Of a stretch of 64,000 nt of DNA, positions 19,872-49,520 are shown piece by piece; the first letter of the stretch is position 1, and each line of letters begins with the position of its first letter. The stretch spans positions 868,001-932,000 of the forward strand of contig NW_026570243.1 in NCBI RefSeq assembly GCF_019649055.1, read 5' to 3'. The stretch is from Paramacrobiotus metropolitanus (taxonomy: Eukaryota; Tardigrada; Eutardigrada; Parachela; Macrobiotidae). The notes below the pieces were generated by a model. It was not told the DNA's origin and did no database searches. It saw only the letters and a list, made by a program, of their open reading frames with translations. The position numbers were made by a program, and so were the translations under genes.

Positions 19872-20990
19872 TTTTCCTTCGACGGAACTCTTGAGAAGAC
19901 GGTGTAGAATTACAGCCGTAACAGCCGACGAGAAGAAAGGGGAGAATCGGTACCCGGTTCCCATCCCCATCTGATCGCCGCCAGCCAGAACGGTCTGGTT
20001 CCTCTTCTCTCTTTTGCAGGCAGAAAGCCTCAGCGAACTCTCCTCTCGTGCGCGGACGGAACGATCTTGCGCTTACGGCCAGCGGAACGACTTGGCCCGG
20101 GTAGATCAGCGGACGGAACGATCCTGCGGATCCTCGGACTATACGGACGGAGCGGAACTCTCTCAGCACTCAACAATCGGGGTCGCCTTTGCGTTAAGTC
20201 GCACCCGCAGCTTTACCAGCGCTTGCGGAAGGATTTCACCCGGAGAATCCGGCGGATTGACCTGAACGGACGGTACCACACCCGTACCCACCCGGTAAAC
20301 AGGTCTTTCAGACCCTTGTAGAGCCTTAAGAACCCGATATAGCCGGGAAATTTTGATTTCTACCGGACCAAAAGTAGTTTTGGCCGGCTAAAACTTATTT
20401 TTACCCGGATAAACGGGCTTAAAAACATCTTTTACGGGTAAAAGTAGGGTTAGCCTACCTTACTACCGGAGACCCTCGGAGTCCCGGCTAACGACCTTTG
20501 AAACTTTCGGAAAATTAGGCAAACTAATTTTCCCCGGCTAAATTAATTTTTGGTCGGTGAAAAAAAAGTTTTCCTAATTTTTCTGAATTTTTCGCCGATT
20601 TTCCCACGGCAAAAATAAATATTTCAAATTAAAAATTAATTGTGACGTCACTACGGCCGATTTACCGTACTTAAGATTGACCAATCAGAATCTTGGGGAG
20701 AATCCCTATGTTATAAGCCCGTAGTGTTTTTTGGAAATTTGCACAGGGCGCGCAGAATCGTGACGAAGGCAGTAATCCGCAAGACCACTTAATAGTGTGA
20801 CGTCAGAGCGGTCAGTACTGTAGTAAGGACGTACGTAAGTAGCACCCTGTATTAACATCAGTACTGAGTTGCAAGTAGTACAAGCACACACACCACATCA
20901 ACCCCACTCCACCGGACCTTCGGACCCTCGGACCTTCAACACAAAGACTTCATCTCGGACGTCCCCAATTAGGGACAAGTCCGGACTTCA
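19872..20990 (+). other. 5' leader of element B
   Basis: About 1.1 kb with no supported ORF. GGACGGAACGATC repeats occur at 20050-20135. Two perfect CRE palindromes TGACGTCA (20642-20649 and 20799-20806), an inverted CCAAT-type motif (ACCAATCAGA, near 20680) and a TATA-like TTATAAG (near 20711) cluster 200-350 bp before the first ORF. They could act as an internal promoter. This is inference. Confidence 0.45.
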
Positions 20991-22045
20991 TTGGCCGAAG
21001 GGATAACCCGGAGACTAGTTCACGGATCCAATAGTGCTACACTTGGACATGTCTGGGCGGGAGGACATCTACGCTCGGAAGCCCGACGTGACCAGGCTGG
21101 CGGGTACACATTCCGCCATGCCGGCCCGGGCAACCCGGAACCTAAATCATCGGACTCCAATCGGTCGACGAAGTCCAACAAATCGGACAAATTGACCAGC
21201 TCGGCCAAGGAGAAGCGAGATCAGCGGATCCAGGAGCTGGTCTAACCCAATCGCCGGCGGATAGTTTTGAGGACGTCCACGATCGGACGTTCTTGGAACC
21301 ATCACGGGCTGAACCGGAGGTTCTGCTTGGCCCAATAGGCCTAGACATGTTGAACCAGGAGCCTGCAGCGGGACATGGACACCCAACAGATGCCGTGTCA
21401 AGCACATCTCCGGCTAAGTCCTCGGAGAGTGGAGCCTCGGACCCGGCACTTAGCAGTGCCGCGGAGTCACCGGACATGGGTGACCCGGTGTCACCCCAAC
21501 AGGGTGGCATGGGAGCCAGAACGGAACCGAGGCAGACCCGAATGAGCCCTAACCAGAATGGAGGGAAGGTTCCACCGGCCCGGGAGGTGACCCACAAGGC
21601 GGGTTCACCAAGTAAAACCCCGGTGTCTCCGGTCGGAGACCCTAAAATTCCAGGCAATACCCGGAAATCAGCATCCCCGGACCTGAGACGACCCGTGGGG
21701 ACTTCGAAGGTGACGTCACCGGACCCGAAGCCCCGGACCGGGACCCCAACTCGGACCTTGGATTCACCGAGGCCGACTTCGGGAAGCCAGAAGTCGTCAT
21801 CGGGGACACTGCAGCCGGCTAAGACCCCTAACACCGGGGCTCGGACCCCAACCCAACAGGTCGGAACTCCGAAAACCCGGTCTGCAACCCCTACTTCCCC
21901 GGCCAAAAACGCCATTTCCCCGGCAAACTTTCGGATTTCACCGTCCGGAACCGAAGTAACCTCGGCCACCGGGCTTCAGATCTCGGTCACCGGACCTTCC
22001 CCTGGCAGTGAACCCATACTGACCAAGGCTAGCCGGGAGGAATAG
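20991..22045 (+). pseudogene. First ORF region of element B (Ser/Pro/Thr-rich)
   Basis: A short frame (20991-21245) with a Ser/Lys-rich end (SSDSNRSTKSNKSDKLTSSAK) is followed, in another frame, by 21293-22045, about 250 codons rich in P, S, T and G and full of SPxK/TPxT-type motifs. Neither begins at a convincing ATG over its whole length (the second has an ATG at 21347). It is low-complexity and disordered, with no domain. Two CAATA/CAACA-loop hairpins lie inside (21329-21341, 21492-21506). Confidence 0.45.
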
Positions 22046-22168
22046 ACTCGGAAGTCAAAGTCCGCGTGGCCTCAGAAGGAAAAGCCGGCGACGGAACTTC
22101 CTCCGACACCGCCGATGTTCGAACCCTCGGAACCCCGGGCTAGTAAGACACCGTGACCGACTGACGAC

Positions 22169-23560
22169 GTGTTCGACGCAACCGTGTTGCCCAACCAGGC
22201 GACCGGACGTCCGGATAGCTCGCAGGGTTTCATCCGAACTCCGCCACCGAAGCAGTACCCTGGTTCCCATATCGGAACCTCGGATTTCACGCCTCAGCGG
22301 TATCTATCAAAGACTCCCCCGGAGAAGATCCAAGATCCTGAAGTTCTCCGGCAACGGATCTACGGGTTGCAGAATCAGCTCGTAGCCGCATCTAACATCG
22401 TGGAGTCGACGGAAAATGTCTTGTCAATGACCGTCGCCACTAATCAGCGTGAGCGCAAGAAGTTCACGGCTGATTTAGATAGCGCGAACATCGCTATCGG
22501 CGACCTTACCCAGCAGATCGAACGGCTAGAGGCCCAGTTACAGGCAACTGAAGCGCTTTGCCGATACGACCAGAATTAAGTCGGCCGACTCCAGGATTTG
22601 CTGGAGCAGCCTCGTGCCGAAGTGGTCGCCCTGCGCCAGGACTTGGAGCAGCGGCTATCGACCCTCGGTGATTCGGAGGCTGGCTCGGCTTATCTGCAGG
22701 ACATGCTGGGTCGGATGGATGAATACCGGGACGAGAATGACCGGTTGAAACAGGGCATCATTTGCCTGGAGGTTAAAATCGACGAGCTCCAATCAGGGCT
22801 CGAAGTCCTCCGGCAGGCCTATGAAAATCACCGGCTGAATCAGAATGACCCGGAGGGCGTGGCCGTGGACCTTCGGCTATACCAGGCTCAGCTCACCGAC
22901 CAGATCTATGCCCTCAACGATCATCCCCGGAGCGAAGCCGCTCGATTTGAGAATGACCGAAGAGAGAACCTCAAGGTTATCGAAGCTCAGCGGGCTTGGA
23001 TCGCCCAACTGGAAGCCGAGAAAACGGAGATGAAGGAATACCAGACGGGTTGTATCAGTATGGTTGCGAAGCAGCAGCCATCATCCGCGGATACCTTCGA
23101 GAAAAAGAGGAGTGCGAGATCGAGGTGGCCTGCCTTAACGCGGAGAAGTCCCACATCGAGGAGTCGCTGAACGAGCAACCCCCGTCATACCGGACTACTC
23201 AGGAGCAGGAAAAGTGCCGTCAGATTGATGACTACCTGCGCCGGGACAACCCCTTGCTTGGCCCAATAGGTCAACCAGGGATGTCCACTAACCAAATCTA
23301 TCAGGTCGGGATGGTCCGTGGCGAGCCGTCTACCGGGAATCCACCTTTGAGGGCCACCAGTCCCATCGGCCCCGGAACCAGAACGGAACACGGCCACGTC
23401 AAACGTGCCGACCCAATCCACGGCAACGACAACCATGGCCTACGGAGGAACGTCCGCAAGCGTGACGTTCTCAACCGGACTAGGCCTGTGGCGTCAACTT
23501 CTGCCAGACCGAACCCGGACAACCGACAACAGAGTCAGATCCGAGGCTCAAACCCCCGAG
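22169..23560 (+). pseudogene. Coiled-coil protein upstream of Gag, element B
   Basis: The frame is open from 22169, with one TAA at 22577-22579, to about 23040. It then continues in another frame (motif EKEECEIEVACLNAEKSHIEE) to the hAT insertion at 23561. The region 22400-23200 is heptad-rich (LTQQIERLEAQLQ; WIAQLEAEKTEMKEYQ). An HVKRA motif near 23395-23410 and a basic RRNVRKRD segment match the order in element A's coiled-coil ORF. It is broken by a stop, a frameshift and an insertion. The function is unknown. Confidence 0.6.
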
Positions 23561-25279
23561 CAGACCTGGGCAGTTATGAGATTTCGACTCATAGTTAGAG
23601 TTAAGAGTTAATCGCAGCTCGCGAGTTACGCTACGAGTTAAGTTAGCCGCAATAACTAAAGTTAACTGGAGTTAACTTCTAATACAAAAAATCATGATTT
23701 TATTAATCAACTTCAAGTAGTCTTTTATGCATACCGATATCACTTTTACCAGATTTGAGACACAGACCAATTATTAATTGTTTTCTTAAAACTGATTTTT
23801 AAAATTCATGCTTTTTCTTATGTTCCTTTTTCATGTTTTTCCTGAGGCAGAGAGCGAGAGACACATTTTTCTTGAGGGAGGAAGATAAAATATAAATGAA
23901 ACGTAAGAAAGAATAAGAATGAAACAAAAGAACGAAACATATAAAGCATGCTTGTGTTTTTTGTGTTTTGTTCTTATTGTTTTTCCTGCCTGTTTTCTCT
24001 CACCCTCAAGAAAAAATCAATCATAAGAAGTTCTTATCTGACAAAATTCCTCCCTCTTTTTGACCCTGGCTTTTGGGGCCGAGCGCCGGCAACGCTGAAC
24101 ATTTTTACTAAGATTTCGCTTCACATGGCTACCGAAGTTAGTGTAGCTGTTTGACAGCGTTGACCGCATTATTACGCTTCCCTAATAGGCAGGTAGCGAA
24201 CAATTACAGGTAGCAGGTAGCAGGTAGCGCACAGACGATCAGTTCCCGTGTGATTTTGGTGCGGAGCATGATTTGTCCTCTCCTTGACAAAATTTTGCTC
24301 CGAAAAAAATTACGTTCTCTGCACGCTGTTAATTGAGCTCAAATTGAACGACCACACTCACTGTGCATGGACTCTCCGATGCATATTCATCGACCGAAGC
24401 GTAGCGAAGGCAGATTAATCGACCGGAGCGTAGCGAAGGTCCTCTTAAAATTCAGCACCAATGCAAAAATGTATCTGTGTCCGTTACGAAAGGTTGTTAC
24501 GAAAGGTCATTACAAAATATTGCTGAGTTAAAATTATTGATTATTTTAATTAAGAGTAGTAGCACTACTCTTAAGAGTGCTACTACTACTGGTAGTATAG
24601 TAGTAGCACGTTAAAAATTAATTATGATTCGCACAAACGAAAAGCTTCTGCGCTCCGGTCTGCCAATGAACGCCAACGTGCATTTTTCCTAGTACATACT
24701 TTCGTTGATTTCTGTCCGTTACGAAAGATCGTTACGAAAGGTTGTTACGAAAGCCATTTCCAACGAGTAACTGGAAGTCTCTGCTTATGTTGCTAAGCCG
24801 TTTTGCAAAATAATATAAAATTTCATTACTTATTCAACATATTATACAAATAGTATTAAAATACTTAAATAGTTTGTAATATAAAATGTAGTATACTGTA
24901 CTCAAAGGAAACGCTGCGCTCCGGTTTGTCAAATGCACGCCAACGTGCATTTTTTCTAGTCTAGTCAAAGCCTTGGGCGGTCGTAGTGTACGTCGGCTCG
25001 AGAAATTTTGTACACACATACTTTTGTAACTATGGCAATTTATGCGATCCACGGTTAAAATAACATTTTTTCTGATATTTTCTATGTTTTAATTTCGTTT
25101 TTGCTTTCAACTGAAACCCGCAGAGTTACGTTAAACTCGAGTTGCGCTATATTATTTTTGAGTTGCGCTAGAGTTAAGTTTTCGTCCTGGCGTTTTAAGC
25201 TTCAAAGTTAATTTATAACTCGTTAACTCGAAAAAAACTCGCGTTAAGTTAAATAGTTAAAATTAACTGCCCAGGTCTG
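23561..25279. mobile_element. Non-autonomous hAT-like element inserted in element B
   Basis: The termini are CAGACCTGGGCAGTTA (23561-) and its complement TAACTGCCCAGGTCTG (-25279). The flanks CCCCCGAG (23553-23560) and CCCCAGAG (25280-25287) form an 8-bp target duplication with one mismatch. An 8-bp duplication and a CAG-GGGCA-type terminus are hallmarks of hAT. No transposase frame is present. The inside is AT-rich, with subterminal GAGTTA/TAACTC-type repeats and short repeats such as GGTAGCAGGTAGC near 24210. Confidence 0.85.
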
Positions 25280-25550
25280 CCCCAGAGCCCCGGCTACCGG
25301 GTCGGATAATTCCGGCATCGGAATAGGACTTAGGCCACCAGGGGGCTCACAGCCCAACTCGGCAATCACCGATCAGGATCGAGGAAGGTCGAACTCCCAA
25401 ACGGTGTTCCCCCTTCGAGCCCAGTCGGCAATGGGCGGACAGAGAAACTGGGCCGACCCGGCACACCCCGGCTACTCGGCCAACCAGGCTCATCAGCCCC
25501 GGCAAGATAACCCGGGCCCAATAGGCCCGGCGCCGCAGGCTGATTAGTAC

Positions 25551-27528
25551 TTGGTAGTGCCACCAGGGATGTGGCTGGACCAGAACGGAGTCCTCCAGCG
25601 GATTCCCGGCTATGGAGCGCAGAATCCTCCGCTGAATCCAGGGTACGGAGCGCAGAATCCTCCGCCCGGACAAGGACAGCCACAACAACCGGCACCCCCG
25701 GGAAACCCGAACCCCCAACCTCAACCGAACCCACTCCAGCCAGCCCCGGCCGCGCAACATACATACAACGTATGTGGCATACATGCCGGCCTTGCATCCT
25801 CCGGTTGCCCAACAGGCACAACCGGCGATACAGGCCTATCAGCCCGCGCCACTCGAACAAGACATCGCGCAAGCCCGATTAGAGGGCTATGAAGAAGGCC
25901 GAAACCGCTATGAAGAGCGAATGGCTCGGATTGCGGCTAAGAAGAACCGGGCGACTTGCCAAAGTTCGACGGCGATCGATCCAAAGTGGAGGGGTGGATC
26001 ACCAAAATCCGGCGAATCTATCGCCAGGAGGCGGACGACATCGGAATGTCCAATACCGCCTTTATGAACGAAGTGGAGAGCGTTCTGACCGGGCAGGCCC
26101 TGGATTGGTACCAGAACCAGTCGGCCCTGGAACCCGAGGAGAACGGCTGGCCAGTAGAATACTGGCTCCAGCAGTTTGCAGCCGGCTTCGCGGAAGCGGA
26201 TAAGCAGGTGACGGCAATAGCGGACATCACTAATCGAAAGTACAAGTTCGGGCAAGAGACCCCGGAGCAGTACTATGACGCTATTATCAACCTCCAACAA
26301 CGAGGTAACCTGAGTGACCAATTGGCCGTTCACTATCTGCGGGCAAATGTCCTGGAGCCGAACTTACGGGTGGCCTTAGACATCCGAATGCCGAAAACCA
26401 CGCGGGAGTTCCGAGACTACCTTCGGGACTACACACGGGGAAGGCCCATGTATGAAGTCCAGAAGGGCGGTAATGTCAATAATTATATTACCGTCAGAAC
26501 GGCGACACCCCCCGTCCCGGTGACTCAACAGCCTTCCGGTTACATCCAATCCAGCTCGCCAGGTTAGCAGAACGTGCAACCGGGACTTCATCGACCAAGT
26601 CCCACGGCGACACCCCCTCCCCAAGCCCGGGCTCAATTGGACCAGACTTGGGCGGCGATGGCGGCGTTGAACCTTAACGGATCCCCAACAGGGATCGTGG
26701 TTCCGCCGCCCGCTTACGGAAATAGTGGGCAACCGAGTCAACCTCGGAGCCCCGGCTACGGCAAATCTCAGAGTCGGGGTTACTCCGGCTACGGCCAGCC
26801 CCAACAGGGCTACAGCCAGCCTCGGAGCCCTGGCTACGGACAGCCTCAACAAGGCTTCGGCCAACCCCAACAGGGTTACGGCCAGAACTCCGGCTATGGC
26901 CAACCTCAGAACCAGGGGTACGGCTCCGGAGGTGGGTATGGACGCGGTGGAGCCACACAATATGGCGGCTCCGGCGGAAGACGTGGCAACCGTCGCGGAA
27001 ACTTCGGCAACCGCGGAGGCGGAGGTGGCCAAGCGCAGAATGCCCAACGGCAACCCCGCACACCACAGCAGGAGGCAATTAGCGACCTACGTAGATCGGA
27101 TGGAAGCAAAGTTCTTCCAGTGGACACAGGACGGAACGTTCTCGTGTCCCCACTGCATGTGGGGCAACCACAACCAGGCGAGTTGTGGGTATGCCGGACT
27201 CCGGGAGCAGGACAATCCTAACCGGAGATGGTACAAGGATTGGAGGTACCGCTACGATAACGGATGGCCATTGGGCCCGGCGAATCAGAACTACGCCAAC
27301 ATGGTGCCACCACCGCGCCCCCGTCAGCAGAATGTCGGCGGAGGAAATCAGCAGCCTGCCCAAGGGGGCGGAGCAAACCGTCAGAATGGCGGTCGGCCTC
27401 CGTTGGCGACTCCGCCACCAGGCCAGCGGCCACAGTTGCCGCCCTCCCAGGCTCCCAGTAGGAGTCAGGGTGGGTTCTCACCGGCAGCTGGTGGGCCGGT
27501 CCCGGGAACGTCCCAGGGAAACGCTTAA
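25551..27528 (+). pseudogene. Gag of element B
   Basis: Coding runs through three frames. 25551-25780 is a P/G/Q-rich N-terminal part. 25774-25960 is a charged segment (LEGYEEGRNRYEERMARI). 25956-26567 is the capsid-like domain (FDGDRSKVEGWITKIRRIY...), ended by TAG at 26565-26567. 26568-27070 is a GYGQPQQ-type Gly/Gln/Tyr-rich repeat and RGG region. After a shift the last part (to 27528) carries a complete zinc knuckle CPHCMWGNHNQASC (CX2CX4HX4C, 27145-27186) and a P/G/Q-rich tail. It is homologous in layout to Gag of element A. Its stop TAA (27526-27528) directly follows the frameshift signal. Confidence 0.75.
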
Positions 27529-27582
27529 GGTCGATGAGTGCCGGTGACTCGTTCGACCTCCGTCATCTAACGGAACCACCGG
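27516..27582 (+). promoter_or_regulatory. Candidate -1 ribosomal frameshift signal, element B
   Basis: G GGA AAC lies in the Gag frame at 27516-27522, two codons before the stop. After a 6-nt spacer (27523-27528) a stem forms between GGTCGATGAGT (27529-27539) and ACTCGTTCGACC (27547-27558), with loop GCCGGTG. Loop CCGGTG (27541-27546) can pair with CACCGG (27577-27582), giving a possible H-type pseudoknot. The -1 frame is open into the protease region. Heptamer, spacer length and loop sequence match element A, while the stem sequence does not. Confidence 0.85.
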
Positions 27583-29747
27583 ATAAGGATAACCCCACTA
27601 ACCGGACTAACCCTTTGGACACAACTCGGAACTTTGACATGGATTCAGCCTCCGCAACGGTCAGCGAAGCTGGCAGAATCTTGGCGGCGGGGACGGTAGC
27701 CCAATCAAGCACCGGACTTCCCCGGCTCGGAAACTCGGAGAACCGACCCGAACCTCGCAGCACCGATAACGCGGCTCCCGGTCCAGAAGAGGTACCCGGG
27801 GGGATCGGCCAAGAAACTTTGGCCCGATCGGCAGGAGCAAGAAATGCTCCACCCGGCCCGAGAAGGGGAGCCGGAGGGGTCGGCCGAGGAATTTGGAACC
27901 GACCGGCCGGGACAAGAAACGTTACCGAGCCGCCTGGAGGGTTCAGTGCCCAATTAGGCACTGCGAACCCCGGGCTCAGCGGACAACCGGGACGCCGGAC
28001 CGCAACTTCAAAGTATGCCAGAGTGACATCCAAACCGTCACCAATAGGCCAACCGGGATGACGGCCCGTCGAACGGACGGAGGATCCCGCCGTACGAGCA
28101 AAAACTCCGGAGGGATGGGAATCAGTCCCATTAGAAGCACAGGTACCCGTTTACTCTCGGCCGGAAGAAACGGACCTCTTCCAACGCCAGCCAGCAAGAA
28201 CCGTAACAGGCTCGCGTACGTTCTTCAACGTGCAGTACAACTTGTCGACACTGCCGGAGGGGGAACCAACCATGGAAGAACGGATTAACAGCCGAATAGC
28301 CCCGGTAGAAACCGCCGAATCACTAGTGGACGGAGTAGCTAATCGCCTGGAGGTGCAACACTCGATTAATGAGGTTTCACCAGGCCGATCAGCCCCGGCT
28401 GAAAGACTTATCCGACGCAACCGAGCCTCGGATGAATCTGGATCATTGGTCGTCTACCCACAAGACGGAGTAGACTCAGTAAGACCAGTCCAGCAACCTC
28501 TTCAGCCGCCGCGAGTAGACAACAATAGTGTCCCCAGCGAATTAACCCTGATTCCGGTGGAAGTTACCATACCGGAAGTAACTTTCCAACCGCTCTCGTC
28601 CACCGGACGATCGAAAGTAGTCCGGGCATAGACCCATGAAGTCCAGATTGGACCGACCACAACTACGGCCATGTTGGACACCGGAGCCGAAACATCCCCA
28701 ATAGATAAGCGTTTCTGCCGGGCCAACAACCTCAAAATCGAATCCATGGGGTGCTTCACCAAAATACTCGGTGTAGGCGGACAAATAGCCTTCATGGTGA
28801 CCCATTGCTGCACCGTACCGGTAACGCTGCAAGGATACACCAGCCCCCACACATTCCATGTTCAACCGAACAACTCGGATGTTCCAGTCCTACTTGGATG
28901 CGACTATCTGCATTCTAAGTTCATCCTCACCCGGGCGCCGACCCCCAATAAGGGTCAGCGAAACCCATCTTCGGGTGTAATGCAGCCTATCCCGATACCA
29001 GAGGCATCGGCCACGGCAACGAACACGGCTCGGATTAATCGGACGGTTAACCCGATTATCCCCGGACCCTCGATTTGCCCAGAATGCTCGGCCACTGAAC
29101 AAAGCCTCGTCACGGAGCTGCAAGCCCACAACGCCATCGAACAGCACATGGCCAAAGTACGGACAACCCGACTGGAACCAATAAAAAGGATATTAAATTC
29201 TATCCCGATACCAGAGGCATCGGCCTCTGGTATACTCAGACAAAGATACCGAACATGGTTTTCCGGCATCCAACACCTCCTTGAGGCCAGAACGGTCGAA
29301 ATAATAAATGAGCTCGGACGGGTCGGCGTGAGAACCGACGACCAGATCCGCCAAGCCAGAGAGGAATGCCAGGCGGTAATTAACCTAACCGAAGCCTTAG
29401 AAGAGGAGATCATCGAATGGGAAGAGGAACGAATCGTACTCCACGCACAATTTGCGGAACATCAGCTTCCCATACCACCGATACTTGAAATCCAAGCCCA
29501 CGAATTGGGCAGGCGACTCTTCTGGCACTTCAGAGACCCGTATCACCTTGGTACACTGGACACTGCCTCATTTTGGAGTAAGTTCGGTGAGAATAGCCGA
29601 GGCGTGCCGGACCCCGAGCCTCCGATTGAACCCCGTAACTGGCACCAGGCCAAGAAAGTGAGGCTCTGTGGAGACGTATACCCACAAGAAGGGGGTCGTC
29701 TAGCCAATATCCGGGCAAATGTCTCGGATCAGGAGTATATGGCCTAG
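27529..29747 (+). pseudogene. Retropepsin-like protease region, element B
   Basis: A single frame (-1 to Gag) runs from the frameshift site to 29747, broken by TGA at 28059-28061 and TAG at 28629-28631. The protease active site DTGAETSPID starts near 28677 and the second segment VLLGCDYLHSKFIL is near 28890. Downstream, IPIPEASA occurs twice (near 28990 and 29205), matching the IPVPEA repeats of element A. Then comes a coiled segment and the motif LFWHFRDPYHL...SFWSKFGENS, shared with A's pre-RT ORF. A frameshift near 29720 leads to a CPIC-containing frame that continues the protein. Confidence 0.75.
29208..29233 (+). repeat. Perfect 11-bp inverted repeat over the PEA codons
   Basis: ATACCAGAGGC and GCCTCTGGTAT pair perfectly around a 4-nt ATCG loop. 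It contains the nonamer CCAGAGGCA that precedes the 3' LTR. Confidence 0.8.
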
Positions 29748-38355: not shown

Positions 38356-38580
38356 AGAGACCGTGTCGGCAACACCGACTGGTAGACGGAGCAGATCCCC
38401 GGTTAAACAGGTGTCTCCAACTAGAGCCATGTCCCAGCCTAACCGGATGCCGAGCATGAACCCTATTCAACCCCCGCCACCGAGGTTTTCCCCAAGACGG
38501 AACCCTCGGGAGGCTTCACCGGAACGAATGGACACTTTGTCCCCGGCAAAACCGGAGACAACGGCAAAGAACCCGGCAGC

Positions 38581-39318: not shown

Positions 39319-39364
39319 TGCGCGAGGCTCAACTCGACTTCAGATCGCCCGGTTTCTCAACGTA

Positions 39365-41131
39365 ATGTACACCTACGGGGACAAGCCCCGGGGCGAAGCC
39401 GAGATTGAAGCAATCCAGACGGCAATCGCCCCAATCCTACATCAGATGGTCAGGGATAGAGAGCTGCAGACTACCAATGTGCAGCGCGGACAATATCTAC
39501 GGTACACCGTACCTGACTTTATCCCCCTGGCAAGACGAAGGGAATTGAAGCTTCGGATCTCATACGTCCATAACAAGAATAGGGACTGTGCCGGAGACGA
39601 ACCTCAGGCCAGACCAGTGGAATCGCGAGCGGCCCAGGCGAGGGTCTGGCTGGAACTTGCCAGATCAACAGCAGCCTCCGCGGGTAGCCGATTCCCCCAT
39701 GACCGACCCAGGGCACCCGGAGATTCGAAGGGCTACGAGGTGATGGGACCCTCGACCCGGGAATCGGCTAATAAGCAATCTAAGCACGCGGTGCGGGATA
39801 AGAGGGGTAAATTCATCAAGGACACACAGTCAGCTTCCCCGGCATCGCAGCCTACCTCCCCGATGGACTTGTCGGCTTCGCAGGCTGGAACCTCAAAAAG
39901 GGGCCAGTCTACGACTAAGAAGCGCAAGGATAAGGGCCGGACATCTCGGAATCAGCAGTCCCTCGAGGAGGAGGAAGATTCTTCCTCGGAGAATGATGAC
40001 GCCGAGTCGGAACAGGACTCCGACAAAGCCGATAAATCGGAAGGCGAAGATGACGATGATGATGATAAAGGGAAGCCGCCAACAGCGGCACCCCAGGATG
40101 GAAACTTGGAGGAACCGGACCAACCAGAGGATCCTCCGGCGGAAAACCAGGATGAACCGATGGATGGGGAGAATGCTGGCCAGAGTGCCCCTTCCCACCA
40201 ACAGAACCCGGGTCAGCTCAACCAGCAAAAGCTTTGGGAACGAACACCCAGCCCACCGAGGGATCAACTGCTTATGATGTGGCACCAAGACACAGCGCAA
40301 GTTCTACCACGGGAGATCCCAGCGAAGCCCATATTACGGGTTCCTCGACCGAAACAACCGGCGACGATGCGAGCGGCTAAACCGAAGTTTAAGCCTCGGA
40401 TCTCGGACACCGATGAAGGTTGGGTGCACGTACATGCTGCACTCAAGGCGCTATCTTGGTCTGGCCCACTGTACGCAACCCCGGACTTGGCTTACCAACT
40501 GTTAAAGCAATGGCGCGTCGATAAGGACGGAAGCTGGTTCGACCTTAGCCTCGACAGAGTCAAGAAATACTGTCGGTTGGCTTACGAAACAGGCGCCATC
40601 CTCCGAGTCTACACCCATACTGGAAGGCCATATTAGGTCTTCCCGAGGGAGAAGCAAGACCCAGCACCCCGGACTTACCTTGGATGGCGAGATGCAATCA
40701 TCGCCTGCTTGCGGACGGATCGATACCCGGACGGATTAACTCGCCGGGAGATCCTGAGCCACCTAATTGGTCGGTTCGAATTTATCCGGATGTCCGCCCG
40801 ACCTCAATTGGAAGATGATCTGTATCGACCAGTCCGAAGAAAGCAGATCAACCTGTACCACCTTACGGACGAACTGGAATACGTTCTGGTACAGGCCTGC
40901 CGGCAGAAAGCCTTGGAATGAGTGAGGCCTACAAGACGCCCACGCAGCGCTTCTCCGTCTTCCACTTACCTACAGACTTCGGCCAACACTTGCCTAAGAC
41001 CCGGTCCAGCTCGGAGAGCCCAAGTAAGGCTTTACCCGGCTGCCCGGGCCAAAGAGTCCAAGAAACGGTTAGCACGGGCGAAATTCATCAACCCTGCCGA
41101 CGTGCCGGAGGAAGCCCGGAAAGTGACTTGA
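39365..41131 (+). pseudogene. Winged-helix-like accessory protein of element B
   Basis: The frame is open from the ATG at 39365, interrupted by TAG at 40634-40636 and TGA at 40919-40921. The N-terminal domain is about 100 residues. A central disordered segment carries an acidic run (KSEGEDDDDDDKG). The C-terminal half has two similar helical modules, GWVHVHAALKALSWSG...YQLLKQWRV and GWRDAIIACLRTDRYPDGLTRREILSHL, whose spacing resembles winged-helix repeats. The second module has a clear homologue in element C (RYPDG...LTRGEM). It may bind nucleic acid; this is inferred from fold-like patterns only. Confidence 0.6.
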
Positions 41132-41374
41132 AAGTGAAGTCACCCGAGGCTCCTTGCCCAATAGGCGAGGATAGATAGCCTCTACAACGGGAATGTTTTC
41201 TAGCCAAACAGGCTGGAAGGAAACAACTTGGAACGGAAGAGAACCGACCGTACCCGACCGTAGTATTTGTCTAACCGTAGAACGTAGAACCCAATAGGTT
41301 TACGTAAAACCTAAAAGGTTTAAAAATAACTTAATAAAATTTAAGTTTGACCATAGCCTCAGCCACAGCCTCGG
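41132..41374 (+). other. Spacer with CAATA hairpins, element B
   Basis: This non-coding gap contains two strong hairpins, at 41152-41170 (7 bp) and 41283-41304 (5 bp plus 3 bp around a bulge), and a related TAAAA-loop hairpin at 41307-41321. Confidence 0.6.
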
Positions 41375-41815
41375 ATGGAAGCCTACAACCCGGAATGCCA
41401 GACGTGCCGGGCCAACAACGATTCACCGCGGACCCTCTTACCTTGCGCGGACTGCTTGCTACGGAACCTCGATAAACAAGCCGAGGACAACAGGGCTCAC
41501 CGACGGGACCAGGCTGTGGCCTTCTACCTTCAAGGCGTGACTGGAAACTTGAGCGCATACACCCATTTGGTCAGCACTAGCCGGCTCCTAGACCAGTTGC
41601 ACTCACAAGAGTTGTTGCATTTGTGGGACATGCAGCGCCACCGTCGCGTTCGACAGGAACCCGGGTGGCGTAACACCCTACCGGTCCCGGAGAATCTCAA
41701 GCTGGTTCAGGTCCGTGAAGCACGCCGAGAAAGTGAGCGTGAAGAAGAGCGACGGGAACTTGCGGCAGTCGAACGGCAAATCGCCGCAGACAGCGAGAAC
41801 ATGAGGAGCGGATGA
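41375..41815 (+). CDS. Small CxxC protein of element B
   Basis: The ORF is 146 codons, intact. Residues 8-27 contain CQTC and CADC separated by about 12 residues, like a zinc ribbon. The rest is helical with a very acidic/basic C-terminus (RESEREEERRELAAVE). A segment around AVAFYLQGVTGNL...QEPGW has a decayed homologue in element C (52430-52620). The stop overlaps the next start as ATGA. Confidence 0.6.
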   Translation: MEAYNPECQTCRANNDSPRTLLPCADCLLRNLDKQAEDNRAHRRDQAVAFYLQGVTGNLSAYTHLVSTSRLLDQLHSQELLHLWDMQRHRRVRQEPGWRNTLPVPENLKLVQVREARRESEREEERRELAAVERQIAADSENMRSG

Positions 41816-42942
41816 ACCGGGAGAACATCCCACCCCCGGCTGCTCCGACTGGTAGGCTCACAGTGGAGCCCAAAAGGTCCCCGGATGAGCCCGCGGCACA
41901 CTTCAGCGGACCGACGAACCTTTGGAACGCGGATGGAACCGTAAATATTTCAGCATTGGCTGGTGCGTTCGCCGCAAACCCGAACCCTCTCCCAGGAGCG
42001 ACCTTGGCATTTATCGGACCAGATGGTCAACAATACATGGCCCAGATTATCAACCCTCCGCAACCGCAAGCCTCTGCGGCAATACCGCAAGCTCAACCGG
42101 AACAGCAGCCGGTAACCCTGCAAGTGAGTGGCTTACCTCAACCCCCTGCTCAATCGGTAGTTCGCTCGGCTGACCAACCAAGAACGGTGGCAGTGACCCC
42201 AACAGGGTCCACCCCGTCCAACAGAAGAAGCCAGAGTGTAGCGGACTTGGCCCCCGGCGACCTACGTCACAGACTGAACAGTGACTTACGCCGGAAATTG
42301 GAGAGCCAGAATAGGTCCACTACTGACCGAGCCCCGGCTGACCGAGCTTCGAAGGATCGAACCCGGCCTTCCCCCGGCAAACGATCCGGATCGGAGGATA
42401 ACGGAGGATTGGTGGTGGACTCTAACACTAAGTCTCGTTGGAACTTCACACAGCCCGTGACTTGACACCCTACACCAGCTCCGAGGCCGGATCCACAAGT
42501 GATGGCCCCGGATGAGTTACCGGTGCCCCAGTACCCGATACTTGAAGTGGAAGTGCCAGGCCAGCATGACTCTCGGTATGACCATGCACGCCGACAGGGC
42601 ATTGCGGTGGAAACCCCACACCCGACGGAACGGACGGATTACGTCATGGCCACCATGCGGTACCGGGAGGATCGTCGGACTCAAGTCTGGAACATGATGC
42701 ACGGGTTACGACAGTTCCTCAACAACTCCGGTTACCAGCAGATGTTCGAACACCGTCAGGGGTCAGAAGATTTTCAGATGATTGACCGACTTGCGTATGG
42801 CATTGGCTTCCCGCACTTCCGGAACAACGGCCTGCCTAGCGCCACCGACCCGGCTATCTTGGTCATATCATTGGATCGACCCGATTGGTCCCAGTTGAGC
42901 CAACTCAAGGTCCCAAGTATTGGTCCCAAGCAGCCATGGTAG
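41812..42942 (+). pseudogene. Accessory ORF of element B after the CxxC protein
   Basis: One frame runs from an ATG overlapping the previous stop to 42942, with TGA at 42463-42465. The first part is P/Q/A-rich. The second part (42499-42942) holds a compact domain with ERTDYVMATMRYR and VWNMMHGLRQFLNNSG. This domain resembles segments in element C (IDYIMGAI...WW) and in the distal ORF of element A. The function is unknown. Confidence 0.55.
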
Positions 42943-43589
42943 TCACGGCTGCCAGAGCATCCCGGGACATCCCCGAGTACCTTGGAGCCATCGAACCGCA
43001 GGCTCAAGGAGAAGCCCCGATGGCCTTCCTGACGGCTTAGCGACTGATTTTCGCAGCCTGGCTAGGCCACCATCACAGCCATTACACCCTGTACTGCGCG
43101 TACCGGAATAACAACATTCCACCCACGCTGCGAACCACTGTAGCCCGGCTCAGCACGCCGATGCAGGACGCGGTAGTTTGATTGTGGCTTCGGGACTTCC
43201 TGATGACGGCAGAACGATGGAAGAAGGAGTACCAATATTACCCTGACGAGAAACTGGACAACGACGAGGCCTCGACCCTCTCAGAATGGTGCCGATGTAA
43301 CCGCCACCTACCACCTGGGTTCACTTCGCCACCGATGCCTGAATGCAAGTCATACTACCGGTATGACATGTGGCCCGGCTCATCATCATCCAGCAGAAAC
43401 CGCCGGCGTCGAGAAGCACGCCGTGTAAAGGCCGGAAAGCCGGATCAGGAGGCTTCAGACACCCAGTCAACCTGTACCCAGGAAGCCACGTCCTCGAACC
43501 AACCGGAACAACGCGGCCCAGACAAAGATGACGACTCGGAAGGATCCCATTTTGGTGGTGGAGCCCCGGTCGTCGGCGACTTAGAATGA
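42936..43589 (+). pseudogene. Last accessory ORF of element B
   Basis: The frame is open from about 42936, with stops at 43038-43040 and 43179-43181, then 135 codons to 43589. It contains helical sequence, CRCNRHLPPG and an RNRRRREARR basic run, and ends acidic. It probably continues the previous protein after a frameshift. Confidence 0.5.
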
Positions 43590-43714
43590 GAAAGACCGGT
43601 AGCTGGACCCCAATAGGGTGAGGCTTACCGTTAGGACCGGTCAAATGGACATGACGACGTCTCCAATAGAGACTTAGACGAAGTTTTACCCGGATAACCC
43701 GAAGGAGAACTTTC

Positions 43715-46700
43715 GCAGATCGCGTTAACCACGTTCTGCTACCTAACCGGACCCTCAATAAGGGATACGGTGGGTTAATACATCTTTATACTATGTCCAA
43801 ATGAACCTTAAAGAATGGATTCCCCGGACCGACTCGGCAACCACGGGTGCACCTGTCAGAATTTCAGAGGTGGCACCGTACCGGTACGTCATCCCCGGTT
43901 TTCCCCGGACAGAATCCGTCAGAAGGCTCGGATCCTCCGGCATTAATCCTTTAAGTGCCAAAGATCGTGTGCCTAACCACATCTGCTACGTACATCACAG
44001 ATCGTGTCTTCAACCATGATCTGCTACCATTACCGCAGACCGCGACATCGAACCACTTCTGCTACCGAAGAAAGTCAGAGTCAGCCACAAGCACGGCTGT
44101 CCGTGGAGATCTCAGCGAGGGAACCGCAGACTGTGGTCTATAACCACGATTCTGCTACTAGCTGGACCCTCATTAAGGGATACAGCAGTAGATCCCCGCA
44201 GATCGCCGGCAACCACGATCTGTTACCTGATCACCCTGCAGACCGCAGCCTCAACCATGATCAAGCCTTTGAACGTACACATTGTTCAATATCTAACCGG
44301 ACCCTTGGAGCTCCGGAGTAGAGGCCCAGTAGCCCTCCACCTGTGAATGAAATTCTAAGTTCTGCCCCCTAGACGCGGGGAGCAATATCATCTACATCTG
44401 AGGAACGGAAATACCAGAGAAACCCCCGAAGGGAAGGCCGCGGCATTTCAGGAAGACATATTACCTTAAATGCATCGGTCCGAGAAATAGAGTCCAAAGA
44501 AGTGGACCTTGCCGGACCTTAACCCGCGAAACGTCGGATAGCTACCTTGTGAACCCAATAGGTTCCGAGGAAAGCGCTTAAAAGTCCGCTTCGGATGTTC
44601 GAAGCCTTATCCTCGGGTAGACGGCCGGGCAGAACTTTTACCTCACCGCCTACCGGGGATAACCCGATACGTACCTTTGAACCTTGGACTCTGGTTTATG
44701 CCACTTCGGGTAGACATACATCCTAAAGTGACATAGGCAGGCATCACCCTCCAGAATTGGACGGCATGAAGAGTGGTCGGAATGGAAACACTGATGTGGA
44801 CCTTGGAATGGGATCCACATCGGTGTTTCCCGGCATTGATACCTTTCCTGAGAACCCAATAGGTTCCGGGATAGGTGCCCAACAGGCCGCCAAATACTAA
44901 AAGGAACCTGATCCCCGTGGACGATCCGGGCAGAACTGAGACCTCGTCGTCTGCGAGGGATAACTCGAGTAAAACCCTCGGCCCCGTTGGACTGGACTCG
45001 GCAAGCAAGTTGCTTAGACGGTTCAGCGTGACCACTGAATGGAAAGGGCCTACCGTAGCTTTCGAAGAGAAGCCTCCTAAACCACGGGGGTCCAAAGGAT
45101 CCTTCGTACGAAAGGAGGTTTATCCGTGCAAAACAGCACGACCGGCTATATTGGGCGGACAAACCACTACGGCAGAAGAGCCCGAGACCCTCGGATGGAT
45201 CCCTCGGATGAACCCGATAAGTACGAGTTCAACCCAATCGAACCGTACCGGATGTTCCCCCTGGCTTCCCCTGGACGAACCGGACAGAATGTTCCGGTCG
45301 CCGGCGACAATGACAGGAGGCTAACCGAGCCAATAAGCGAGGGTATGCAACGTCACTGACGGAGCCTAGATGCGTGACGGTTTAGTTGGCCTCAGTCGAA
45401 TCAACGACTCCGCCACCGTCGATCGCTTCTGCAGAACCTGTGGAGGATAAACCATAGAAATGCCACAGACCGTGATACCAACCACGGATTTGTCGTTGAC
45501 TAAGGGAGCTGTCCCCAATAGGGACACCCCGATGTCGGACCCCGGACAGGAGGAGCCGAACCATCGCAGATCGCGTCATAAACCACGAATCTGCTACGTC
45601 AACGGGACGAATCACACGAAAGGTGGTTAACCAGGGGCATAACTTGCCGAGTCCCCCTGTTTAGACCACTCCGGCAGAAATATCCCGGCAAATCATTCCC
45701 ATAACTCGGACTTCGGAGCCCAATAGGCTCTCAGTCACTCAACCCAGCCCGGACTTCTGCGGCCTAGGAAGCCATAACTCCTATACCGATGAAGCCCAGG
45801 CGAGAAACCAGCTTCACAGGGATTCGTCGCACGAATAGCGGCTGGACAAGCACAACTGCGCACAACACACTTGTTCTTGTTCAGGCCCCTCCTGCAGAAG
45901 GACCCCGGTGGAATAGCGGTTCCGTAACTTGAACCGTTAGAGCCCAATAGGCTCTGCCCACCGACCGAATGTGGACCGCGCTGGCCTGGAAGCGACTTTT
46001 CCTGACCACTCGATCCACACGACTTAATCCCCGGACCTTGAACCAAAGAGGATTCCGCTAACATACGGTCAAACACGTCATTGCCGCGTTTGACCGCATC
46101 TTTGCCAATGCACCCATGGACAACCCGGGACTTGGAACATTAGCTGGCTGTACTTTAAACCAGCGATGGGCCCAATAGGCCCTACTCGTAAAGACACTTA
46201 AGTGGGCCACTATGATAAGTGAATGGGCGACATACATCTAACTGGGCCAGCTTCAGTTATTTTTTTCCCGAGCCATATGGCTGTCAACTTTTTGTTTTAG
46301 CAGATTCAGGAAAGTTTGTCCTTTGCAGAGTACTTGGAATTTTTGAAATCGGATCACCCGTTTTCGAGTTATTTGCGTTGTAAAAAACCGATGACGAAAG
46401 CACTCAAGCCACGCCACGCGAGCCACTGCACTACAGCAAAATGACTTTTGTAACCGTCACACATGTGCGGCTGCAGCTCTTCTTTATCGCATCACGCCTC
46501 AGCACCTATGCAGTACAGTAAAATCACTGCATTCACCGCAATACGCGTGCAGAGGCGTCCTGTGATAAAGAAGTGCTGCAGCCGCACATGTAACATTAAA
46601 AGCCATTTTGCTGTAGTGTAATAATCGCGTGGCGTGGCTTATGCTTTCGTCATCGGTTTACAACGCAAATAACTCAAAAACCTGTGATCCGATTTTAAAA

Positions 46701-46994
46701 TTCCAGTACTCTGAAAGAGCAAACTTTCTGAATCTGCTAAACAAAAGGACAGCCATACGGCTTGGGAATAAAATAATTGAAGCTGGCCCACTTGTGTCGT
46801 CCATTCACTATCCCCATTATAACCACTGGGTATTGAATGACGTTGACTCCACCCGGGATCCCTCGTACGAAAAGCGACGAACCATTGTGGAGGAGGGTAA
46901 CCCGCTCCGCTCCAATGGCTCGTCCCTCCGGCAGAAGGACTCCGGACCTTGGAATACGACCATCACGCAGATCGCGCTAACCACGATCTCTACC
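43715..46994 (+). repeat. Hairpin family ending in the PBS complement
   Basis: Copies occur at about 43715-43743, 43962-43989, 43998-44029, 44035-44066, 44126-44158, 44198-44227, 45566-45598 and 46967-46994, with weaker ones near 45470, 47050 and 48510. The pattern is GCAGATCG-loop-CGATCTGC-TACC. The copy at 44018-44029 contains GATCTGCTACCA, the exact complement of the first 12 PBS bases. Confidence 0.7.
46200..46830. mobile_element. Foldback element in the 3' region of element B
   Basis: Long inverted arms share TGGGCCAGCTTCA near 46243 and 46780. The match runs through GCCATATGGCTGTC / CAGCCATACGGC and on to GATAAAGAAGTGCTGCAGCCGCACATG near the centre. The outer ends are near AGTGG (46201) and CCACT (46828). 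No coding capacity and no clear target duplication, so the superfamily is unknown. Confidence 0.75.
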
Positions 46995-49520
46995 TCGACG
47001 CTGCTTGCAGAAGCGCAATAGGCCTCTAGCACAGCTTAGCAGCCCGCGGTAAAACCACGATCTCTACCTGTACGGACAAAGGCACCAGTAGAGGCCCATT
47101 AGGCCTCCAGCCCGGAGAACTCCCTTCGGAACGGATGGATCGGGACATTAGGGCACATCGGTACCATTGCTCCGATCCAGAGGATCGGACTCATGGTACT
47201 GATGACCGGCATGACCATTCACCCGCGAACCGGACCTTGGTCACCTCACGGAACGTGCTAGGACATTAGGGAACGCTCGTATCCTTGCCCGACCTCGAAG
47301 AAGATCGAGTAATGATACGCGTGTCCGGCATGACTGCATGCTCGACGGAAGCCATGGAAAGACGCCAATAACTACGGCAGGTAGGCCCAATAGGCCTTTA
47401 TCACGCCGATGAACCATCTTCCAGTAAACCCTGGAATGGATCGAACGTAAAGTGGCACGCCAGTGGTTCGGTGTAAAAACTCCACAACGTATTGCTTGCG
47501 GGCCACCTCGACGAGAAATTCCGGAGTAAAAGAAACGGAAGAAGCCCAATAGGCTCCTATTCCACCTCAGAACGATGGATTGAGACAGTAGGGCGCACCG
47601 GTACCGTTGCCCCAATCCAGGAGATAGGAGTCCCGGTATCGGTGCCCACCATGACCGTTCACCGCGAATCGGATGGTGGTCCCCGGAAGGAGGAGACCAC
47701 GGATACCAGCTGAACTTGCTGGATTGCCCGGATAGGATCCAAAATGGACCTCCCGCGGAGAATCCCACGGTGTGAACCGGCCAGAACGGACGTGTTTCCC
47801 GATGACCAAGACAGGACGCTTCGATACCGGCATCCCGGGTGTTTCTGCCTAAGTAGAAGCACGGGATCGGCCGAGGGACGGACCAGAACGGACCCCGTCT
47901 TTACAACCTCAGAGTGCCTACCCAGCGGCTAAGACCCAATTAGGTCTAATATAGCCGCAGGGAAGCCTCTTCTTGCATGATTTTTGCTAGTCGCCCGGTG
48001 AAGATCCCCGGCATCGAGCTCGGACTCCCACCAGAGCATGTTGGGCCAGTTTTGGTCGGTTCCCAATAGGAACCCCCGACCAAACCAGCAGGGACCGGAA
48101 TTGGACTCCCATGGCTTAGAGACCCATCTTTCCGTTGACAACTCGGAACACCCGAGGCCAACAGGGCTCGGATCCCGCCCAGAAGCCTAACATCCCGGCG
48201 GCAATCCTATCCTCAACGCCCAATAGGAGCAAGAGGGCAACTTAGAGGATTCCGCCCGGATGGATCTCCCATCAGATCGGCTTGGCTTGCCGTCAACTAT
48301 GGCTTGGCTTGGCTTGCCTTCGGACTTGGAATCGCTAGCCGAGGCTGCCACTGGACTTTAATCCAGCAACCGGGGCTACCTTAGGATTCGACCCTTTGGA
48401 CCCTGGATTTGACGTCAGAGTCCGGCATCAACCCTTCTAATGTTGGCCAATAGGCGACAGCTGACAATTACGGGGTTTTTGCCCGGACCGAACCCTCAAC
48501 ATACCCAGTAACCACGATTCTGCCATAGCAGCTGAAACTTCCATCGACCTTTAACTCTGAAACGGAGGCTGCAATTGGACTTTAACTTTTCCACCAAGGA
48601 TGAACCCCGGATACCGAGGCTACCCTCGGTTTGGACCCTTGAAGCCCGACATAACCGGTCCAAGTTGCCCAAATAGGCGACGAGACGCGAAATTACGGGT
48701 TTTGTCCGGACGAAATCCTGGAATTCCGGTACTTTATACCGGAACATTCCCCATCGGAAGACCCAATAGGTCTTATTCCTAACCTAGAGAGGATGCCTCA
48801 TGGCTTTCGCGGATCGCGACGGTGCCTCTCCATTCACCGACTCCATGAACCCGGGTAACGGAGGCTCCATTCAACTTTAACCGGAGGATACCCGGTCGGA
48901 ATATGAGTTTCATGCCCGTTTCTCACCCGGCTTATGGAGATCCATGTCTCACCCCGAAGTCATTCGGTCGGAAGTGAGTTTCGCGCCCCTTTCTTACCCG
49001 ACCTCGGTGAAGTGAACCGGTACCATCGGGTATCTCGGGAACTGATGCCTCGAACCCGGATGACCGGACATCCAGTGGACTGGAGCCCTCGTGTGCGGAT
49101 TAGCTCTAGTCGGAATAAGCACCCGGACTAAAGTCCCGGACCAAAAATTTGTTTATTGTTTTAACTCGAAATGATGTTCTCATTTTCTTTAGATCTGTAG
49201 CAGATCTCTTTTATTAACCTGCTCACCAGGAATTGTGATGTTTTCTTACTTTAACGAGAGAGAGAGAGAGATAACACTATTTTTTACTTTTTTGCCGTTA
49301 CGGACACCATCAACAGAAGCCTACACCGGTCCAACTACAACACCGACCGACCTTCGGATTTCTGCCGTGAGTTGTTCCGCCACGACGGGTCCGGAGGAGA
49401 ACGCGGTGCCGGAGAGACCCACACCGGACACCCCGAGGCGATGCCACCGACCCCAATAGGGTCGTGTGCGGAGCGGGCACTGGGACGGTAGGGGGCCGGT
49501 CCTTCGCAGGGGCTCGGACT

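What the first reader, a model, noticed from the sequence alone, without database searches (positions are those of the whole stretch)
20961..49464. About 39 sense-oriented CAATA-loop hairpins with covarying stems across element B
A constant loop (CAATA, CAACA, CAATTA, CATTA) is closed by stems of 4-10 bp that differ in sequence yet stay complementary. Copies upstream of the 3' region: 20961-20976, 21329-21341, 21492-21506, 23258-23274, 25512-25530, 25801-25825, 26690-26706, 26797-26811, 26842-26856, 26863-26877, 27944-27963, 28940-28956, 30387-30401, 34437-34452, 35572-35584, 35651-35665, 36120-36137, 39090-39104, 41152-41170, 41283-41304 and 42195-42209. In coding DNA the motif lies in different reading frames (PIG, PNK, LQLG), so the constraint is not on protein. 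I saw no copies in the opposite orientation and none in element A. This suggests a recurring RNA signal, for example a Gag or nucleocapsid binding site used to coat a very long genome. This role is inference.
Basis: partly seen in the sequence, partly recalled or inferred. Interest (0 to 1): 0.92.

Follow-up and report, generated by a model that had tools for sequence, protein, structure and literature searches.

The report
Tardigrade giant retrotransposons' family-specific RNA hairpins
A 30-kb retrotransposon in a tardigrade carries some forty small RNA hairpins that share one loop sequence and are kept by evolution, and two related giant families carry different loops, as if each family labels its own very long RNA for its own protein.

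Summary
Element B (window 19423-49893) is a 30.5-kb Ty3/Gypsy element of the tardigrade Paramacrobiotus metropolitanus. Hairpins with CAAYA-type loops (stem >=5 Watson-Crick pairs) number 27 sense, 0 antisense, and 0.07 on average (maximum 1) in 30 shuffles. Five relatives, 77-79% identical to B, carry 33-42 by a looser count, against 0-2 antisense. At eight chosen hairpins read in 20-26 copies, 849 of 911 base-pair cells pair, 9 of 42 pairs changed on both sides, and G-U outnumbers A-C 49 to 5: selection on sense RNA.

New: the loop is family-specific. A related 19.4-kb family lacks the CAAYA class but has 24 hairpins with NACRGAA loops. A third has NANC tetraloops: 15 sense/0 antisense where found, 7/0 and 5/0 in held-out stretches (6/0 and 4/0 without a shared LTR hairpin). 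Four other sequences showed no clear class.

Best explanation: dispersed recognition hairpins read by an element-encoded protein, most likely the nucleocapsid part of Gag, each family with its own code. The hairpins and their selection are shown; the reader protein and packaging are inferred.

The parts
19423..49893 (+). Element B, giant Ty3/Gypsy LTR retrotransposon, about 30.5 kb
   Evidence: LTR match 19423-19781 / 49536-49893, 94.7% identical; PR, then RT/RH/INT Pfam order in relative c4
19423..19781 (+). 5' LTR (part that matches the 3' LTR; may run on to about 19853)
49536..49893 (+). 3' LTR (truncated or diverged after 49893)
26400..28600 (+). gag region, frames broken in this copy (limits approximate)
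   Evidence: homology to the c4 gag frame L018:3412-6756
28671..29747 (+). protease region (PF13975, E 3e-4, below its cut-off)
31779..32531 (+). reverse transcriptase / RNase H piece (PF00078, PF17919, PF17917)
32858..33616 (.). inserted inverted-repeat element inside pol, not part of the system
20961..20976 (+). hairpin, loop CAATTA
21329..21341 (+). hairpin, loop CAATA; covariation in 26 copies
21492..21506 (+). hairpin, loop CAACA; covariation in 26 copies
23258..23274 (+). hairpin, loop CAATA, G-U in stem; relatives have CAACA with a weaker stem
25512..25530 (+). hairpin, loop CAATA; covariation in 20 copies
25801..25825 (+). hairpin, loop CAACA, bulged stem
26797..26811 (+). hairpin, loop CAACA, in the gag repeat
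26842..26856 (+). hairpin, loop CAACA, in the gag repeat
26863..26877 (+). hairpin, loop CAACA, in the gag repeat
27944..27963 (+). hairpin, loop CAATTA
28940..28956 (+). hairpin, 7-base loop CCAATAA
29884..29899 (+). hairpin, loop CAACTA (CAATTA in three relatives)
30387..30401 (+). hairpin, loop CAACA
34437..34452 (+). hairpin, loop CAATAA
35572..35584 (+). hairpin, loop CAATA; covariation in 20 copies
35651..35665 (+). hairpin, loop CAACA; one both-side change in 20 copies
36046..36063 (+). hairpin, loop CAATTA
36120..36137 (+). hairpin, loop CAATTA; not kept in relatives, may be chance
38365..38379 (+). hairpin, loop CAACA; no ortholog seen
39090..39104 (+). hairpin, loop CAATA; three relatives have CAAAA in its place
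40075..40089 (+). hairpin, loop CAACA
41152..41170 (+). hairpin, loop CAATA
41283..41304 (+). hairpin, loop CAATA, imperfect outer stem
42195..42209 (+). hairpin, loop CAACA
43607..43619 (+). hairpin, loop CAATA; kept in nearly all of 21 copies, inner stem does not vary
43659..43673 (+). hairpin, loop CAATA; both-side changes at three stem pairs
43752..43764 (+). hairpin, loop CAATA
44167..44179 (+). hairpin, loop CATTA (CAATA in c5)
44551..44565 (+). hairpin, loop CAATA
44852..44866 (+). hairpin, loop CAATA
45510..45526 (+). hairpin, loop CAATA
45715..45731 (+). hairpin, loop CAATA
45938..45956 (+). hairpin, loop CAATA
46168..46182 (+). hairpin, loop CAATA; no ortholog aligned
47091..47107 (+). 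hairpin, loop CATTA (CAATA in c5)
47383..47397 (+). hairpin, loop CAATA; no ortholog aligned
47543..47555 (+). hairpin, loop CAATA; no ortholog aligned
47932..47947 (+). hairpin, loop CAATTA
48058..48074 (+). hairpin, loop CAATA; no ortholog aligned
48758..48774 (+). hairpin, loop CAATA
49448..49464 (+). hairpin, loop CAATA, last one, 71 bases before the 3' LTR

Best explanation
The hairpins are recognition sites in the element's full-length sense RNA. A protein encoded by the element binds the constant loop presented on a short stem of almost any sequence; many contacts along the RNA let the protein find, coat and condense its own very long genome. The most likely reader is the nucleocapsid part of Gag, a glycine/arginine-rich stretch followed by one zinc knuckle inside a conserved domain of about 80 residues. 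Co-resident giant families use different loops (CAAYA, NACRGAA, NANC), so the loop would also mark which RNA belongs to which Gag. Shown: nearly sense-only hairpins, far above chance, kept at orthologous sites with compensatory changes, and family-specific loops. Inferred: that a protein reads them, that it is Gag, and that the purpose is packaging.
For: Excess and strand bias: 27/0 against a shuffle mean of 0.07. Present in five relatives, 33-42 sense against 0-2 antisense. Class hairpins found in three relatives match the window at 87.5-90.7% while their flanks match at 74.2-77.7%; other hairpins of the same minimum stem match at 77.6-78.7% with flanks of 77.2-77.7%. Eight hairpins in 20-26 copies: 849 of 911 cells paired, permutations reach at most 831, slid partners pair in 15-49% of cells, 9 of 42 pairs changed on both sides, G-U 49 against A-C 5 (29 against 5 without one constant outer G-U pair). 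Family-specific loops. The NACRGAA family has no frame of >=200 aa, within each piece read, between integrase and the 3' LTR, yet 11 of its 24 hairpins lie there. Gag carries a CCHC knuckle in a domain shared by all three families at 53-57% identity to the c4 sequence; such knuckles are known RNA binders (general knowledge). Precedent: STNV coat protein reads AXXA loops present in about 30 copies per genome (PMC3593212, passages).
Against: No binding, expression or particle data. In yeast Ty1 and Ty3 the cis-acting signals lie near the RNA ends and most internal sequence is dispensable (PMC4974528, passages). Four other sequences (C216, C71, C41, element A) show no clear loop class, so the feature is not general. 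In the old window copy 5 of 12, 6 of 16 and 5 of 12 ungapped class stems taken from c4, c5 and c1a are broken. Several window hairpins (22783, 32639, 36120, 42075) are not hairpins of this class in the relatives aligned. The eight hairpins were chosen by me, partly after seeing changes, so its rates may be flattering. The paired total exceeds the permutation mean by only 28 cells (849 against 820.6), because most stem pairs do not vary. The NANC loop is short and degenerate and was defined after seeing the data; it held in two held-out stretches, but the label-free test is weak for it (7 against a shuffle maximum of 4).
Confidence: 0.55

Rival explanations
1. A host RNA-binding protein reads the hairpins, for nuclear export, stability or translation of a 30-kb RNA, and each family happens to use a different host factor.
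For: Hairpins are densest in the 3' non-coding stretch (2.42 per kb in B, 2.17 in the c27 family), where export or stability elements often lie (general knowledge).
Against: Three related families in one genome use three loops, which a single host factor does not explain; hairpins also run through gag and pol.
Confidence: 0.2
2. Another element protein, not Gag (for example the frame before gag, protease, RT or integrase), reads the hairpins in a step such as reverse transcription or the control of splicing or translation.
For: The frame before gag and the pol proteins occur in both B-type and c27 elements.
Against: Among the frames of >=150 aa scanned in c4, c27 and C51, the CCHC pattern occurs only in the Gag region.
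Confidence: 0.15
3. The hairpins are structural RNA features without a specific reader, for example part of a general excess of local structure that slows reverse transcription or hides the RNA from silencing.
For: All short hairpins together are about twice the shuffled number in B (182 against 97) and 2.6 times in c27 (152 against 58); but background DNA also exceeds shuffles (76 against 49).
Against: Structure alone does not need a constant loop; other hairpins are not conserved above their flanks.
Confidence: 0.07
4. A DNA-level feature: palindromic protein sites, or small mobile hairpins that spread through the element.
For: The core contains CCAAT, a known DNA motif (recalled), and stems are palindromic.
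Against: One orientation almost only; CAACA loops break CCAAT; G-U far exceeds A-C in varying stems; a self-comparison of the window (E <= 1e-8, matches over 80 bases) found no repeats linking hairpin sites; many sites are orthologous between copies.
Confidence: 0.03

Closest known systems
Dispersed RNA packaging signals of single-stranded RNA viruses (MS2, STNV, parechovirus, enterovirus-E) and of HBV
   Same: Many short stem-loops across the genome with a short loop motif; STNV has AXXA loops in about 30 copies (PMC3593212, passages); enterovirus and parechovirus sites (PMC7793301, passages); HBV loops with RGAG (PMC7612645, abstract start in listing).
   Different: Those motifs are more degenerate and were found with the help of SELEX (as the passages describe for STNV and enterovirus-E); here the loop is nearly fixed, in an LTR retrotransposon, with covariation at single sites and a loop that changes between families. 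Binding is untested here.
Ty1/Ty3 cis-acting packaging sequences
   Same: LTR retrotransposon RNA recognised by Gag; the Ty3 zinc-finger motif is critical (PMC4974528, passages).
   Different: Ty1/Ty3 signals were mapped near the ends and internal sequence is dispensable; here hairpins run through the whole internal region. The same review says that scattered sites may contribute.
Burro giant Gypsy-like elements of planarians
   Same: Gypsy-like, over 30 kb with LTRs, very large frames (PMC6431247, passages).
   Different: Hairpins are not mentioned in the passages read. Burro's internal region is up to 25 kb of over 30 kb, so its LTRs are long, and it has known accessory domains; B has a short LTR, and the post-integrase frames scanned have no convincing Pfam match.
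Retroviral packaging signal (psi) stem-loops
   Same: Stem-loops bound by the nucleocapsid part of Gag (general knowledge).
   Different: Clustered near the 5' end, few, each of its own sequence (general knowledge).

Membership tests
Ty3/Gypsy LTR retrotransposon | LTRs flanking the element | tested here: met
   19423-19781 / 49536-49893, 94.7%
Ty3/Gypsy LTR retrotransposon | Order PR-RT-RH-INT | tested here: met
   Pfam matches in relative c4: protease frame first, then RT, RNase H, H2C2 and rve in one frame
Ty3/Gypsy LTR retrotransposon | Place in an RT tree among Gypsy clades | not tested
   No tree was built; filed by domain order only
Dispersed packaging signals | Many stem-loops with a shared loop motif across the genome | tested here: met
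Dispersed packaging signals | Conserved across variants of the genome | tested here: met
   not every site is kept
Dispersed packaging signals | Sequence-specific binding by the coat protein or Gag | not testable with these tools
   needs binding assays
Dispersed packaging signals | Needed for selective packaging | not testable with these tools
   needs particles
Burro-like giant element | Burro accessory domains (BIR, ankyrin, MATH, BCL2-like) | tested here: not met
   No such Pfam match in the 10 c4, 4 c27 and 6 C51 frames scanned

The most novel reading that the evidence does not exclude
Several giant retrotransposon families that live in one germline have evolved separate loop codes, repeated dozens of times along each RNA, and a matching Gag domain for each, so that each Gag packages only its own very long RNA. 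Related families would then differ by a switch of both code and reader.
Probability: 0.45. Interest if true: 0.92.

Novelty: new variant of a known kind. Interest (0 to 1): 0.85.

Why it matters
Dispersed packaging signals are hard to prove in RNA viruses because the motifs are weak and degenerate (my judgement). Here the motif is strong, its conservation can be read in dozens of genomic copies, and three families offer a built-in specificity test. It would also bear on how LTR elements exceed the traditional limit of about 10 kb, for which packaging capacity is one proposed cause (PMC6431247, passages). A small zinc-knuckle domain with three natural loop targets would be a good system for RNA-loop recognition.

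Tried and rejected
Element A (14.5 kb, minus strand), the C216 and C41 relatives (83% RT protein identity to c4) and C71 (81%) were scanned for their own loop class; none was clear. In the label-free test A, C216 and C71 exceed the shuffle maximum by one at most; C41 was not in that test. C216 (6.8 kb read) hints at loops with ACA or ACAA. C41 has 3 NACRGAA and 7 NANC hairpins with stem >=4 (0 and 1 antisense) and 0 and 1 with >=5; C71 has 6 NANC sense and 4 antisense at >=4. A first pairing profile used a core shifted by one base and was discarded; one search is the corrected one. RT homologs did not name the host: of 393 proteins, the 120 listed are at most 42% identical and mostly unnamed; HSP70 settled it. 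The Gag knuckle domain has no match in solved structures and two protein matches, both from the same species, one annotated as 'RNA-binding protein cabeza-like'. No covariance model was built; core-only selection and ortholog alignments address the same question with less circularity. Paper searches touching hairpins or packaging in LTR or RNA elements and tardigrade elements listed no report of this kind; several lists were capped (for example 12 of 83, 10 of 22,714), and only an open-access library is held.

Left out before counts: class sites without a window ortholog (2 of 17, 3 of 21, 1 of 16) and gapped sites (3, 2, 3). For one search four stretches with eight hairpins, out of 42 class hairpins listed under parts, were chosen by hand, partly because one search showed changes there; short or weak matches and many further copies were not fetched (18 fetched for the stretch at 35450, 20 at 21250, 16 at 25440, 20 at 43560, from lists of 26, 42, 22 and 80 rows that also hold the window and copies already in hand). 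Gap cells were left out; badly aligned rows at the 43560 stretch were kept and count as unpaired. In the C51 counts one hairpin lies in the LTR and is counted once in each held-out stretch; without it they are 6/0 and 4/0 at stem >=5. L034 also holds about 1.5 kb beyond the LTR.


Full report
WHAT WAS CHECKED. The window is part of a 170-Mb eukaryotic assembly (G000). A host HSP70 from it is 100% identical, over 92% of the query, to one of Paramacrobiotus metropolitanus, so the host is taken to be this tardigrade. Element B spans 19423-49893, between LTR segments that are 94.7% identical. Relative c4 has a protease frame, then RT, RNase H and integrase in one frame, the Ty3/Gypsy order. An RT DNA search gave 42 matches, a lower bound and with a few copies in two pieces. 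The RT frames of this group are diverse: the 96 matches scored run from 100 to 79% identity to the query from c4.

THE HAIRPINS ARE REAL. Of the 21 listed stretches, 20 hold the hairpin as given; one is misplaced by about ten bases. With stems of at least five Watson-Crick pairs, B has 27 CAAYA-type hairpins on the sense strand and none antisense; 30 dinucleotide shuffles give 0.07 on average and at most one. Choosing sites by the core CCAAYAG alone, without asking for a stem, gives 44 sites in the window and 199 with distinct surroundings in the window and five relatives (many are orthologs, so not independent) against 9 antisense. The next five pairs outward are formed in 83, 80, 75, 67 and 53% of the 199, against 62, 39, 39, 41 and 37% expected from the separate base frequencies; at the next pair the excess is gone (32 against 32), though one pair far outside (the twelfth) is again at 50 against 37. 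So the unit is about a 6-bp stem with a CAAYA loop, usually closed by C-G. A label-free test over all three-position loop patterns found 24 five-base loops of the form CA..A in B (1 antisense) against at most 5 in 40 shuffles.

THEY ARE KEPT BY SELECTION. Five further copies (c1a, c1b, c1c, c4, c5), 77-79% identical to B where aligned, carry 33-42 hairpins each by the looser count, against 0-2 antisense. The five are 89-95% identical to each other, so they are close to one lineage apart from B. Many hairpins lie at orthologous places; some window hairpins (22783, 32639, 36120, 42075) have no class hairpin in the relatives aligned. Class hairpins found in c4, c5 and c1a match the window at 87.5, 90.7 and 87.7% while the flanks match at 77.7, 74.2 and 76.9%; other hairpins of the same minimum stem match at 77.6-78.7% with flanks of 77.2-77.7%. 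Stems remain fully paired in the window in 7 of 12, 10 of 16 and 7 of 12 ungapped class sites, against 28 of 88, 22 of 69 and 23 of 75 other hairpins. Four hand-picked stretches that hold eight hairpins were then read in 20-26 copies each. 849 of 911 cells pair; dealing the 3' letters anew gives 820.6 on average and at most 831 in 500 trials; sliding the partner by 1-3 columns gives 15-49%. Nine of 42 pairs show changes on both sides, for example G-C to A-T with G-T in between at 21329 and 35572, and changes at three pairs of the stem at 43659. Other cells are G-U 49 times (29 without one constant outer pair), A-C 5 times and other mismatches 57 times. The excess of G-U over A-C is the mark of selection on the sense RNA rather than on DNA or antisense RNA. 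Permutations do not remove relatedness between copies.

THE LOOP IS FAMILY-SPECIFIC. The c27 family (76% RT DNA identity to B; 19,355 bp by its 447-bp LTRs that are 100% identical) has no CAAYA class (5 sense, 3 antisense by the loose count over 30 kb). It has its own: 14 sense and 0 antisense hairpins with loops CACAGAA, AACAGAA or CACGGAA at stem >=5 Watson-Crick, 24 with stem >=4 and G-U allowed. Many of its stems share CGAC/GTCG, but others differ entirely. The label-free test gives 23 loops of the form .AC...A (1 antisense) against at most 5 in shuffles. The C51 family (80% RT protein identity to c4; about 24.4 kb from LTR end to LTR end, judged from a 63-base match) has NANC tetraloops: 15 sense and 0 antisense at stem >=5 in the first 10 kb read (shuffle mean 0.8, maximum 3), then 7/0 and 5/0 in two held-out stretches, or 6/0 and 4/0 without one LTR hairpin that both contain (30/0, 18/1 and 19/1 at stem >=4). 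The label-free test is weaker for C51 (7 against at most 4 in L027; 4 against at most 3 for tetraloops in L029). C216, C71, C41 and element A showed no clear class. The classes do not mix: c27 has 0 CAAYA hairpins at stem >=5, C51 has 0 in L027 and L029 (0 and 2 at stem >=4) and 0 NACRGAA there (L034 was not tested for these), and NANC in B is at background (3 sense, 3 antisense).

WHO READS THEM. In c27 no frame of 200 or more residues, within each piece read, lies between integrase and the 3' LTR, yet 11 of its 24 hairpins are there, so the large unknown frames after integrase of B-type and C51 elements are unlikely readers. Gag is shared: in all three families its C-terminal part has a glycine-rich stretch with arginines and a single CX2CX4HX4C knuckle inside a conserved domain, 53-57% identical to the c4 sequence, with differences around the knuckle. 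That domain has no sequence match in the PDB and only two protein matches, both from the same tardigrade. This makes Gag the leading candidate by elimination and by motif, not by proof.

HOW IT COMPARES. The closest idea is that of dispersed packaging signals, for example the AXXA loops of STNV, up to about 30 per genome (PMC3593212, passages), and the enterovirus sites (PMC7793301, passages). For Ty1 and Ty3, cis-acting sequences were mapped to the RNA ends, and the reviewers state that packaging sequences are not clearly defined and that scattered sites may contribute (PMC4974528, passages); the Ty3 RNA map says the packaging sequences are not precisely defined (PMC11381356, passages). Giant Gypsy-like elements are known in planarians (PMC6431247, passages). 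The paper searches made here listed no report of many same-loop hairpins in an LTR element, or of loops that differ between families (capped lists, held open-access library only). For a tardigrade transposon study I saw passages only; it treats two other species (PMC11071193).

VERDICT. Selection on sense-RNA hairpins is close to certain (about 0.95). A protein reader encoded by the element is likely (about 0.7). Gag-mediated packaging or coating is the best single mechanism (about 0.55). These odds are my judgement.

Noticed in passing
L024-L026 (c27 family), L027/L029/L034 (C51 family): Related giant families with their own constant-loop hairpins (NACRGAA; NANC). c27 also has many repeats of the type CCGACC-TCA-GGTCGG and ACCGAC-AACAG-GTCGGT on the sense strand, perhaps a second class.
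   Followed up: partly
L018:6202-6534, L024:8078-8410, L029:4676-5008: Gag C-terminal domain of about 80 residues around one CCHC knuckle with conserved NPNR and GSAN motifs, without PDB match; Pfam scans of the frames that hold it gave no convincing match.
   Followed up: partly
L019:5639-10000 and L020:2-3370: In relative c4 a very long open frame follows integrase, with no convincing Pfam match; distant homologs occur in C51 and none was found in c27.
   Followed up: partly
window 32858-33616 and 55824-56586: Two copies of an inverted-repeat (MITE-like) element, one inside the pol region of element B.
   Followed up: no
window 4051-18768 (minus strand): Element A, another LTR element with a protease match and an internal duplication of about 870 bases (12184-13927); no clear hairpin class.
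   Followed up: partly
window 53841-54250: Array of short tandem repeats; weak matches to it occur beside c27 in L026.
   Followed up: no
B-type, c27 and C51 elements: All short hairpins together, whatever the loop, are 1.9 times the shuffled number in B, 1.8 in c4, 1.6 in c5, 2.6 in c27 and 2.1-2.6 in C51, against about 1.4 in element A and 1.6 in the rest of the window.
   Followed up: no
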